A stretch of 64,000 nucleotides of DNA from Treponema sp. (lineage in GTDB: Bacteria > Spirochaetota > Spirochaetia > Treponematales > Treponemataceae), in contig JAEEYO010000015.1 in assembly GCA_016288205.1 (NCBI GenBank), forward strand, positions 124,001 to 188,000. Direction: 5' to 3'. Both the position numbers and the translations under genes were made by a program. Below are positions 38,718 to 46,293 of this stretch, one piece after another (position 1 is the first letter of the stretch; the number at the start of each line of letters is the position of its first letter). The notes below the pieces were generated by a model. That model was not told the origin of the DNA, searched no databases, and saw only the letters and a program-made list of their open reading frames with translations.

Positions 38718-39593
38718 TCAGCCGTTTTGTCCGGACTGGGTGAGAACTGTATGTGGAGGCACGGATTTCGTCACCCATGTGTTTCCTCCTATCACACTGC
38801 CCTCACCTATTACGGTCTCCCCCCCCAAAATCGTCGCGTTGGCATAAATCGTCACATTATCTTCTATAGTAGGGTGTCTTTTTTTGTTCATCAGCTCCTT
38901 CTTCACGCTGAGCGCCCCCAAAGTGACTCCCTGATAAATCTTCACGCTGTTTCCGATGATGCAGGACTCCCCGATCACCACGCCGGTACCATGGTCAATG
39001 AAAAAGCTCTCGCCGATCACAGCCCCGGGATTTATGTCGATTCCAGTCTTTCCGTGAGCATACTCGCTCATAATGCGGGGAATGACCGGAACTCCGCTCT
39101 CACAAAGAAAGTGCGCGATCCTGTAGACTATTATGGCCTCAAGACCCGGATATGAGACAATCACCTCGTCGGTTGACTTTGCGGCGGGATCCCCAAGATA
39201 GGCTGCCTGCACATCAAGACCGACCTTTCTGCGGATCTCTGGAATCTCCTCAATCAGCGCGCGGGAAGTATGCTCGGCAAGCGTGTAGCAGTGGGTACAC
39301 TCAACTCCCTTGTCCTGCACCACATAAAGCAGGGCCTTCTGAATCTCCCTCGTGAGCATGGCGATTATGCGGTTGACCTTCTGCCCCGTAACAAAACGCA
39401 GCGTCGCACTGTCCATTTCCTCGGCGGTACGGAAGCCCGGAAAAATCAGGCTCAGGATGTCATCCAGAATCGTGACGACATTCTGCTGGTTCGGGAAATT
39501 CATCGCCTCCTCAAGATTGATTCCGCCATACTTGCAGTAGGAGTCCAAGATGCCGTCGATGGCCTGGTCGATTGTCTTCTCAAATTTACTCAT
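38718..39593 (-). CDS. cysE: Serine O-acetyltransferase (EpsC-type, long form)
   Basis: 291 residues. It makes O-acetylserine for cysteine synthesis. The helical N-terminal half is followed by left-handed beta-helix hexapeptide repeats with the conserved HGKTGIDINPGAVIGE, FIDHGTGVVIGE and the VTLGALS segment. The first ATG (39605) overlaps the -10 box; ATG 39593 lies ten bases after it behind TGGAA, so it is chosen. Codons for LGG near residue 258 form a run of eight G (38819-38826), currently in frame. Confidence 0.93.
   Translation of the reverse strand: MSKFEKTIDQAIDGILDSYCKYGGINLEEAMNFPNQQNVVTILDDILSLIFPGFRTAEEMDSATLRFVTGQKVNRIIAMLTREIQKALLYVVQDKGVECTHCYTLAEHTSRALIEEIPEIRRKVGLDVQAAYLGDPAAKSTDEVIVSYPGLEAIIVYRIAHFLCESGVPVIPRIMSEYAHGKTGIDINPGAVIGESFFIDHGTGVVIGESCIIGNSVKIYQGVTLGALSVKKELMNKKRHPTIEDNVTIYANATILGGETVIGEGSVIGGNTWVTKSVPPHTVLTQSGQNG
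38819..38826 (-). repeat. Run of eight G inside cysE
   Basis: Eight consecutive C on the plus strand (G in the coding strand). Length is in frame now; slippage by one would truncate the enzyme in its last coils. Confidence 0.8.
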
Positions 39594-39603
39594 ATCAGAT
39601 TCC

Positions 39604-39633
39604 ATTGTAACATATTTATGGAAGAAAGTTCAA
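39604..39633 (-). promoter_or_regulatory. cysE promoter, near-leaderless
   Basis: Minus-strand TTGAAC (39628-39633), spacer 18, TACAAT (39604-39609). The -10 ends ten bases before the chosen ATG. Confidence 0.5.
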
Positions 39634-43302: not shown

Positions 43303-46228
43303 CTATCTTTTCAGGCTTGGCTCCGTCATTGTCTTTGATCCGTCCGCGAAATGGGCGATTGTCGTATACCAGCAGCCTTTCGGGACTTTCTGATAATTTG
43401 ACCTGTCGTATGTGAAGGTCTGGCTCGCCGTCTTGATTGAGACTTCCATTCCCTTGCTTTCCCAGAGCCTGATGTCTTCATCCTCGCTGCCATCGGAGAT
43501 TTTCACCGTGCTGTAGAGCGTGTGGACGAGCGTGGGTGCGTCGCAGTAAACCTGCACACCGTTAGTTCCCTGGACCATATTCTTGATTATACACTTGATT
43601 TCACTGGACGTGCCCTTGTAAATGTAATAGTCCGGGTAGATGTATTCCGTACCAGAAAAACCTGAGGTGGCGGTAGAATAGGAATCATTGTAAAAAGGAA
43701 TGATCTTATACCATTTTCCATTCACCTGACTTTGAGTTACACTATTTTTGAGTATATTAGTGTCTACCACTTCATTGCCTTCCCAATAACTCTTCTGAAG
43801 AAAACGACCCAACCCACAATCCACATCCCAATAGAGTTCCTCTGACGACGAAGTCTTAAGCCCAAATGATGCAATTTCAAGATTTTTCGCGACATCCACC
43901 GACTCACAGTCTCCCATTATATACCACAGAGAATCCCCCGAATTCTTCTCGGCATAAAAAGTTACGGGTTTTTCTGTCATCCTGTTGAACGCAGCAAAGC
44001 TTTTGACCACCTTGTTGCCGCTCATGTCCTTCGCCACGACGCAGATTGTATAGCATCCTTCATCCAGCCCAAGGTACGGAATGAGAATCTTGTCCGCGTA
44101 GAGGTCGTAGGTGATTGTCTTTCCTTCGTATGCGGAAAGCTCCTCAAGCGTATAGGAACGATATGTAACGGAACTGCCCGGATTCGGAATAAAATAGTAT
44201 GTAAGCTCTCCCAATCCGTCCTCCGAGTAAATTTTTATATTATCCTCCGGTAGCTTAAAATAATATGCCGCAGAGTCTCCGTGAATGTATTCAAAAATAT
44301 TGTAGTATTCCATAGTCGGGGGAGCAGCATCATCTCTAAGATTAAATCTCTGGCTCACGGGACCATTGTCATTGAGCTTAATATACTCTTGTGTGTTTGA
44401 CACATAGACCGTGCCATCGGATTTATTTACAGCCTTCACATAAACTCTGTATATCTCCGGTGTCTTGAGGTAAATTCCCTGCTCTCCTGAAAGAGCGAAG
44501 GAGCTCAAATTGTTCTTCGAGTCCTTGAATATGAGATACCAGCTGTAGTCTTTGCTGAATTTATTTGCGTTTGTAACCGTAATCCTGTCGTACCCACTTC
44601 CGCTCTCAATCTGCGAAGCAAGGAATATTGTCGACGGTTTGGCACCTGAATCGATGGAATCCACCATTGTCGGAGCTGGATCGACAACAACCTCGAATTC
44701 CCTATAGCGGGAGCTTTCAGACGGATTCGACTCAACCTTCAGGCTCAGGTATTTTCCGACTGACGCCGAGGAGCACCAGTAGCCATCCAAAAAGAAAAAG
44801 TAAGAATAGGGGTAAATTTTATAGTCATGCCCCGCAGTTAAATCGAAATCATTGTCCGTATAATCTCTCTCGGTTCCATCAGTCAAATCAACAACGCGAT
44901 ATTGGGAGCCAAAGATTGCTGACACACCCATAATATCCTTCAGTCGGTTATAATTATAAGGTGTAATGCTAAAACGTCGTTTTCCAGATTCAACTTTAGT
45001 TTCGCAGCAGTTGATGTCAAAATCTGGACGTGGAGGAATCGCCCTCAAGGTTTCATGAAGATTTCCAACCTCATCCTCCCCGATTATTTTCACATAGGTG
45101 ATTAAATCCGGCTTCTCGTTGATGAAGGAAAACACTCCTTCTTTCACCTCCACCGGTATGTTCACGGAATCCTGTGAATATCCATAGAAAACATAGCGTT
45201 TGAATGGAGCCGAATACGAGCCGTAAAAGACCTCAAGCGAGTCGCCATCAAGGGTTAAGGTCACTGTGTCGCCGGATGCGTCAGACACTTTTGGATGTAA
45301 ATCATTCCAGCTAATTTCACTAAAACGTAAGTACGCACCATCCATTATGCAATCTTTGATTACATAATAAGAAAATTTTTCATTGCTCTCGTTTCCGCAG
45401 CCGTCCAAAAGCGCAATCTCAAGCTTAACAACGCCGTCGTCCATTGTCCTCAATTTATATGAGGTGGAATACGAGCCGTCGGAATTCTTTTTACAGTTTC
45501 TGGAAATCGGAATCGTAGAGACGGAGGGCGTTGAGTTTTTTTCGACACCATCGACAGCCTTATAATATGTCTCGGTAATCTGAACCTCGCCCACCCCGGA
45601 TTGCTCGTCATATCCCGCAAAAGTAATCCACACGGAATCCTTTATGTGGTTCAGGCTGTAGTCACCATGGGCAAAATCACCGGCCTGCTCATCCGACCAT
45701 GAGGCGAAATCCTTTGCCGTAAGCTCCCTGTATCCGCTTGCAGACTCATCCTCTGCGGAAAAAAGCGCGGAATATGTCATTACCGGCGGGAAGGTCTCGG
45801 AGGAAAGATAGCACCGGGGTCTTACCTCAAGGCCGTCCTGAATCCGCCTGATTGTCGCCTTTGCCGTGTAAATCTCGGTTCCGTTTTCCGTGTCCTCGGT
45901 CATGGACTCTTCGCTGAACGTCACAGCGTCCAAATCCAGCCTGGAGCTGTCCGTGCAAGTCCATCCCCTGAATATGACGCCATCCCTTTTCGTCAGCTGT
46001 ACGGTAAAACTGTCCCCCTCGGCACCTGTAAAAGACTGCGGATAAACCGAGCCGTAATCCGATGAGCCAAGGACTACCTCGATTGTGGTTTTGGGAGCAT
46101 TCGCATGGGCAATCTCATCTTCAATCTGTTTTTTTATCTCAGCTCCGTTCAGGAAATTCTCACAGGAAGTAAATACCCCCCCCCGTCAAAAGTATAGTGA
46201 CAAACAGCGGCAAAACAAACTTTTTCAT
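43303..46228 (-). CDS. Large Ig-like lipoprotein, out of frame at a G9 run (phase-variable candidate)
   Basis: The true start appears to be ATG 46228: it has GGAGG six bases upstream and a good promoter (46265-46293). It begins MKKFVLPLFVTILLT and then meets nine G, which shifts into a stop after 22 codons. With eight G the frame continues without interruption for 974 residues, with a lipobox ending at C22 (GGVFTSC). The rest is open from 45933 to 43303: repeated Ig-like, all-beta segments (ITFAGYDEQSGVGEVQITET, DMSGNKVVKSFA) typical of spirochete surface lipoproteins. So the gene reads OFF here, unless a homopolymer error is present. Next to an Rpn remnant. Confidence 0.8.
46176..46184 (-). 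repeat. Run of nine G in the lipoprotein signal peptide
   Basis: Nine C on the plus strand at codons 16-18 of the lipoprotein. Loss of one (or gain of two) restores the 974-residue frame. Confidence 0.9.
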
Positions 46229-46264
46229 ATCACGCCTCCAAAAGGAAAGATTCGTCCACAATAA

Positions 46265-46293
46265 ATTATAATGCAAACCTCGGGATTTATCAA
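46265..46293 (-). promoter_or_regulatory. Lipoprotein promoter
   Basis: Minus-strand TTGATA (46288-46293), spacer 17, TATAAT (46265-46270), about 37 bases before ATG 46228. Shows that the interrupted gene is still set up for expression. Confidence 0.7.

What the first reader, a model, noticed from the sequence alone, without database searches (positions are those of the whole stretch)
46170..46293. Phase-variable Ig-like lipoprotein switched by a G9 tract in its signal peptide
ATG 46228 has a full promoter, a well-placed GGAGG and a signal-peptide start, then nine G at 46176-46184 send it to a stop after 22 codons. Removing one G joins it without any stop to the 2.6-kb frame downstream and creates a lipobox (VFTSC). 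I checked the register: 46228 to the downstream codon start 45933 is 98 codons plus one base. The reading is OFF here. Poly-G slippage controlling surface proteins is known in treponemes, usually in promoters; here it is inside the lipoprotein signal, which would switch both translation and surface display.
Basis: partly seen in the sequence, partly recalled or inferred. Interest (0 to 1): 0.8.

Follow-up and report, generated by a model that had tools for sequence, protein, structure and literature searches.

The report
Poly-G on/off switch in treponeme lipoproteins
A run of nine Gs inside the export signal of a treponeme surface-lipoprotein gene puts it out of frame, and more than a hundred relatives in the same genus show that this is one switch in a large family of lipoproteins turned on or off by the length of such runs, much as gonococci switch their Opa proteins.

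Summary
The minus-strand ATG 46228 has a TTGATA-17-TATAAT promoter and a GGAGG site. Its frame hits a G9 tract (46184-46176) and stops after 22 codons. The other register is open for 958 codons and starts with a lipobox (VFTSC). The same genome holds about ten paralogs; seven more carry a G6-G10 tract in the signal peptide, all out of frame here. I first suspected a programmed frameshift. A survey of 118 family loci from the genus argues against that. Uninterrupted tracts of 7 or more G fall about equally into the three registers (12 on, 16 and 11 off), while loci with short or no tracts are 61/64 on (Fisher 2e-12). One locus is G9/on in Treponema ruminis RU1 and G8/off in a relative (93% DNA identity, 4 kb). 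Off genes stay open and under purifying selection. Some paralogs use an (AAATC)n repeat or a promoter G tract instead. Best reading: translational phase variation by slipped-strand mispairing, analogous to neisserial Opa but in an unrelated modular lipoprotein family. Reversibility was not observable. 'Ig-like' is not established. Unexplained: long G tracts across the genus lie near CTATAC/GTATAG far more often than chance.

The parts
46265..46293 (-). sigma-70-type promoter, TTGATA - 17 nt - TATAAT
   Evidence: 11 of 12 consensus positions
46235..46239 (-). Shine-Dalgarno GGAGG, 6 nt before the start
   Evidence: sequence
46160..46228 (-). out-of-frame short ORF in this assembly: ATG 46228, 22 codons, stop TGA 46162-46160
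46185..46198 (-). ACTATACTTTTGAC, sequence directly 5' of the tract, conserved in paralogs (codes TILLT in the signal peptide); contains the CTATAC box that is enriched near long G tracts across the genus
46176..46184 (-). G9 homopolymer, the proposed switch, in the h-region of the signal peptide
46162..46176 (-). lipobox codons V-F-T-S-C in the long frame
43303..46164 (-). mature lipoprotein coding region from the lipobox Cys (953 aa plus stop), not joined to the start codon in this assembly
45892..46164 (-). conserved N-terminal module (C-x-NFLxG..EIKxxIE..IAxANAP, about 91 aa) shared by all paralogs and found in 56 of 200 genus genomes

Best explanation
This is a translational phase-variation (contingency) locus. 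Slipped-strand mispairing during replication changes the number of G in a homopolymer inside the signal-peptide codons. At G9 (this assembly) ribosomes stop after 22 codons and no lipoprotein is made. When the tract length places the lipobox in frame, the whole signal peptide, lipobox and 953-residue mature protein are translated, exported and lipidated. Two or three Gly codons in the hydrophobic core tolerate changes of three bases. The locus is one of about ten scattered paralogs that share a signal peptide and a ~91-aa N-terminal module but differ in their C-terminal domains, so independent switching would give many surface combinations. Shown here: anatomy, register statistics, allele differences between relatives, and intact off genes. 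Inferred: reversible switching in a population, replication slippage as the cause, surface location and role.
For: 1) Anatomy: promoter, SD, start and 958-codon open frame one base out of register. 2) Paralogs: eight of ten family genes in the same genome carry a G6-G10 tract at the same place; the two without a tract (C48, C6b) are in frame. 3) Genus survey: tract >=7 G, 12 in frame, 16 one base over, 11 one base under (chi-square against uniform p=0.58); tract <=4 G, 61 of 64 in frame; Fisher p=2e-12. 4) Orthologous alleles: T. ruminis RU1 G9 in frame versus RUG13083 G8 out of frame, 93% over 4008 bp; G035 G9 in frame versus G152 G10 out of frame, 87% aa. 5) Interrupted tracts are in frame: G033 GGGAGGGG in frame (L124) versus its near twin with G9 out of frame (L125). 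6) Out-of-frame genes are maintained: median open frame 832 aa in 27 of them; window versus its 73% ortholog dN/dS 0.47; the T. ruminis/RUG13083 pair 0.03; two out/out pairs 0.33 and 0.62. 7) Repeat-type replacement: (AAATC)n at the same place in at least four loci, and G9/G10 in the promoter spacer in L154/L157.
Against: No reads, so no mixed population was seen. All eight tract-bearing paralogs in this genome are out of frame (about 4% if each is independent at 2/3; two have only G6, one of these, C67, is also truncated), so some may be off for long periods. Loci are not phylogenetically independent, and among tracts of 9 or more the registers are 10/14/3, a mild excess of one. Start codons were chosen automatically. 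Most loci come from draft metagenome assemblies. The direct ortholog in Treponema sp. UBA3649 has an N gap beside its G9 tract, so its register is unreadable.
Confidence: 0.88

Rival explanations
1. Programmed frameshifting or transcriptional slippage on the G run joins the frames, so the gene is always expressed at some level and the out-of-frame arrangement is fixed.
For: Within the window's genome seven of eight tract-bearing paralogs are one base over, even with G6, which first suggested a fixed register.
Against: Across the genus all three registers occur at similar frequency, tract-less and interrupted paralogs are plainly in frame, and orthologs differ in register. A programmed site keeps its register. 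Leaky expression of the off state by slippage is not excluded.
Confidence: 0.05
2. The gene is a decaying pseudogene with a fixed frameshift.
For: Paralog C67 has both a frameshift and an early stop; all tract-bearing paralogs here are out of frame.
Against: The 958-codon frame is intact, dN/dS against the 73% ortholog is 0.47 with both copies open, and in-frame alleles of related loci exist.
Confidence: 0.04
3. The ninth G is an assembly or sequencing error and the gene is constitutively in frame.
For: Homopolymers are error-prone and this is a 77-contig draft.
Against: Eight tract-bearing paralogs would all have to be wrong, including two G6 tracts; the near-even register split appears in many independent assemblies, and T. 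ruminis RU1 is a complete genome.
Confidence: 0.03

Closest known systems
Neisseria Opa proteins (CTCTT pentamer repeats in the leader-peptide codons; PMC3960869)
   Same: Repeat inside signal-peptide codons; length sets the reading frame; several unlinked paralogs of a surface-protein family; a pentanucleotide version also exists here, (AAATC)n.
   Different: The proteins are large modular lipoproteins with a lipobox, not beta-barrels; the main repeat is poly-G; no sequence homology was found or expected.
Treponema pallidum poly-G promoters (tprE/G/J, tprL, tp0126; PMC7864442)
   Same: Same genus name, same G homopolymer, surface proteins.
   Different: There the tract lies in the promoter and changes transcription; here it lies in the signal peptide and changes the frame. 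L154/L157 of this family do carry a promoter tract.
T. pallidum tracts inside ORFs (tp0969 at +56, tp0798 at +826, listed in PMC7864442; TP0127 in PMC3373638)
   Same: Poly-G within coding sequence with variable length or a predicted frameshift.
   Different: Single genes, not a shared-module lipoprotein family; no register survey.
Phase-variable mycoplasma lipoproteins (own knowledge: homopolymers near the 5' end, e.g. M. fermentans P78)
   Same: Homopolymer slippage switches a lipoprotein by frameshift.
   Different: Poly-A, a different phylum, unrelated proteins; from memory, not tested.

Membership tests
Translational simple-sequence contingency locus | repeat tract inside the 5' coding region | tested here: met
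   G9 at codons 15-18 after ATG 46228
Translational simple-sequence contingency locus | tract length differs between alleles and changes the frame | tested here: met
   T. ruminis RU1 G9 in frame / RUG13083 G8 out of frame; near-even registers in 39 long-tract loci. For the window locus itself the only close ortholog is unreadable.
Translational simple-sequence contingency locus | out-of-frame alleles keep an intact ORF | tested here: met
Translational simple-sequence contingency locus | reversible, high-frequency switching within one population | not testable with these tools
   no reads or cultures
Opa family of Neisseria | homology to Opa beta-barrel and CTCTT repeat | tested here: not met
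   lipobox protein; repeats are G or AAATC. No Pfam family of any kind reached its cut-off. Works like Opa, is not Opa.
T. pallidum poly-G promoter class | tract within the promoter | tested here: not met
   promoter 46293-46265 has no tract; tract is 44-52 nt after the start codon
Programmed frameshift gene | conserved register across homologs | tested here: not met
   12/16/11 over the three registers
Bacterial lipoprotein | signal peptide with lipobox ending in Cys | tested here: met
   in-frame reading gives n-region KK, hydrophobic core, VFTSC; tract-less paralogs have comparable lipoboxes in frame. Lipidation not tested.
Ig-like domain proteins | Pfam match above cut-off or Ig fold | tested here: inconclusive
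   Big_13 14.3 bits against cut-off 27; AlphaFold mean pLDDT 35

The most novel reading that the evidence does not exclude
Long G tracts in this genus are not just chance homopolymers kept by selection but parts of a recurring cis element: a CTATAC box a few bases before the tract or a GTATAG box a few bases after it, in coding and intergenic places and in unrelated genes. The box might promote tract formation, slippage or transfer of the module between genes, which would make it a dedicated hypermutation or mobile contingency element.
Probability: 0.15. Interest if true: 0.85.

Novelty: new variant of a known kind. Interest (0 to 1): 0.62.

Why it matters
It would extend Opa-style combinatorial surface switching to host-associated treponemes, several of them rumen strains by their record titles, with up to 26 family matches in one genome. 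T. ruminis RU1 is cultivable, so it makes poly-G phase variation testable in a treponeme that grows in the laboratory, unlike the syphilis agent in which poly-G has been studied. It also means that automatic annotation probably misses or calls 'pseudogene' many intact surface proteins in treponeme genomes. The CTATAC/GTATAG association, if it has a mechanistic cause, would bear on how such tracts arise.

Tried and rejected
Programmed frameshift: suggested by seven of eight paralogs at +1, rejected by the genus-wide registers. Two loci with N gaps (L159, L196) were removed from the counts. opc-like promoter reading of CTATAC-Gn on the opposite strand: gene starts follow in only 4 of 37 cases, against 5% of random places. 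TACTATA as an over-represented word: 7 in the window against 0.9 in dinucleotide shuffles, but only 1.3-fold over the expectation from hexamers. AlphaFold of the mature protein with three sequences gave pLDDT 35, so no fold search was run. No paper on phase variation of lipoproteins in rumen or gut treponemes was found in the open library. PMC8049484 counts homopolymers in T. ruminis (fewest of those compared; 9 G and 6 C runs of 7 or more); in the passages retrieved, no phase-variable lipoproteins of T. ruminis are discussed.

Full report
Observation. All coordinates in the finding hold. On the minus strand a TTGATA-17-TATAAT promoter, GGAGG and ATG 46228 lead into a signal peptide that meets G9 at 46184-46176 and stops after 22 codons. 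The frame one base away is open from 46176 to 43303 and opens with VFTSC. The in-frame TTG at 45933, which the ORF list uses as a start, has no Shine-Dalgarno in the sequence before it. In the long frame a TGA lies just before the tract, so no alternative upstream start exists at this tract length.

Paralogs. The whole genome (3.53 Mb, 77 contigs) holds ten members with a common N-terminal module, C-x-NFLxG..EIKxxIE..IAxANAP. Seven others besides the window gene carry a G tract of 6 to 10 at the same place in the signal peptide (C5, C6a, C7, C21b, C67, C71, C73), mostly after the same ACTATACTTTTGAC sequence, and all eight are out of frame. C67 is also truncated. The two without a tract, C48 and C6b, are in frame. 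The C-terminal parts differ: FGE-sulfatase domain (C6a), DUF6273 (C5, C7), EF-Tu domains 2 and 3 (C48, C21b), an fn3-like stretch (C73), none known for the window gene and C71. This is a modular repertoire with one export-and-anchor module.

Phase variation or programmed frameshift? Seven of eight paralogs in this genome are exactly one base over, two of them with only G6. That looked like a fixed register, so I tested it on relatives. The N-terminal module occurs in 56 of 200 genomes of the genus, with up to 26 matches per genome. I took upstream regions of 118 loci and assigned start codons by Shine-Dalgarno, start codon and basic residues. After removing two loci with N gaps, uninterrupted tracts of seven or more G split 12 in frame, 16 one over, 11 one under, which does not differ from equal thirds (p=0.58). 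Tracts of 5-6 are 8 in frame, 3 out. Tracts of four or fewer are in frame in 61 of 64. The difference between long and short is strong (Fisher p=2e-12). Two of the three short exceptions carry an (AAATC)n repeat at the same place. Caveats: paralogs and orthologs are related, and for nine or more G alone the split is 10/14/3.

Direct allele comparison. A scan of the public species-level collection for ACTATACTTTTGNNNGGGGGG gave 17 loci, all in Treponema or Spirochaetaceae and mostly rumen or uncultured assemblies by their titles. Two are the same locus: T. ruminis RU1 (complete genome CP031518) has G9 and is in frame, RUG13083 has G8 and is out of frame; they align at 93% over 4008 bp without rearrangement, and the 369 codons that can be compared are 99% identical in amino acids, dN/dS 0.03. 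G035 (G9, in frame) and G152 (G10, out of frame) are 87% identical, dN/dS 0.27. In G033 an interrupted GGGAGGGG allele is in frame while a near twin with G9 in the same genome is out of frame.

Off genes are kept. 27 out-of-frame long-tract loci have a median open frame of 832 codons. The window gene and its 73% identical ortholog in G033 (Treponema sp. UBA3649) are both open over 950 codons with dN/dS 0.47; that ortholog also shows G9 but has an N gap beside it, so its register cannot be read.

Other switch types in the same family. At least four loci carry (AAATC)n in the signal peptide (L160, L165, L168, L182), and a pattern search finds this arrangement in 3 of 196 genomes. L154 and L157 carry G10 and G9 next to TATAAT in the promoter and none in the signal peptide. 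The same proteins are thus tied to hypermutable repeats of different kinds and positions, which points to selection for switching rather than to one inherited accident.

Mechanism, shown and inferred. Shown: tract position, register statistics, allele differences, gene maintenance. Inferred from established knowledge: replication slippage on homopolymers of 7 or more, stop-codon termination in the off state, lipidation and export in the on state. Not shown: switching within one population, expression, surface location, biological role. I give 0.88.

Known relatives. It works like neisserial Opa (CTCTT repeats in leader codons, PMC3960869). It differs from the T. pallidum poly-G promoters (PMC7864442). 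T. pallidum also has tracts inside ORFs (table; TP0127). A homopolymer count of six newly sequenced treponemes including T. ruminis exists (PMC8049484); in the passages retrieved it does not discuss phase-variable lipoproteins of T. ruminis. I found no open paper that describes this family as phase variable, but subscription journals were not searchable.

Unexplained flank. In G000 eight of nine tracts of nine or more G have an ACTATA or GTATAG sequence within 28 nt upstream. Across 118 genomes CTATAC-N0..12-G9 occurs in 78 rows against 1 for the reversed pattern; G9-N0..14-GTATAG in 53 against about 12. In an unbiased set of 77 tracts from ten genomes 27 (35%) have either box within 30 nt against 2.3% at random places. 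Homology of the family explains part, but the boxes also occur at intergenic tracts, in other lipoproteins and in an acetyltransferase gene (L203). Some tracts with a downstream GTATAG are promoters (8 of 32 precede a gene start against 7% at random); those with an upstream CTATAC read from the other strand are not (4 of 37 against 5%). I have no mechanism and report it as the most novel open point.

Noticed in passing
window 46198-46176; L247-L305; L306-L375: Long G tracts across the genus lie near CTATAC (a few nt upstream) or GTATAG (a few nt downstream) far more often than chance: 27 of 77 unbiased tracts against 2.3% at random places. No mechanism found.
   Followed up: partly
L160, L165, L168, L182, L376-L382: Paralogs in three other genomes carry an (AAATC)n pentanucleotide repeat instead of poly-G at the same place in the signal peptide, with different copy numbers.
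   Followed up: partly
L306, L316, L324, L347, L358, L360, L362, L363, L371: A separate class of G9-G10 tracts sits in promoter spacers, TTGACA-N8..10-Gn-TANNNT, in several Treponema genomes.
   Followed up: partly
L029 (G000:C60 about 117300-117450): A lipoprotein gene with G7 in its promoter spacer (TTGACA-18-TATGAT) and G8 in its signal peptide, in frame: possibly a double switch.
   Followed up: no
L203: The string ACTATACTTTTGTTA-G10 inside a hexapeptide acetyltransferase-like gene of another Treponema, out of frame there.
   Followed up: no
G000:C48 (L068), G000:C21:81099 (L075): EF-Tu domain 2/3-like sequences at the C-terminus of lipoproteins of this family; unusual for a predicted surface lipoprotein.
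   Followed up: no
G000:C6:9901 (L070): FGE-sulfatase (C-type-lectin-like) C-terminal domain on a phase-variable lipoprotein; whether a diversity-generating retroelement acts on it was not checked.
   Followed up: no
window 38819-38826, minus strand: G8 inside an ORF with a hexapeptide-transferase domain (38718-39605); looks like ordinary coding glycine codons.
   Followed up: partly
G000:C40:134-145 and C41:1-8: A G12 tract lies at a contig break: C41 starts in the same tract and flank as C40, probably an assembly break at the homopolymer.
   Followed up: no
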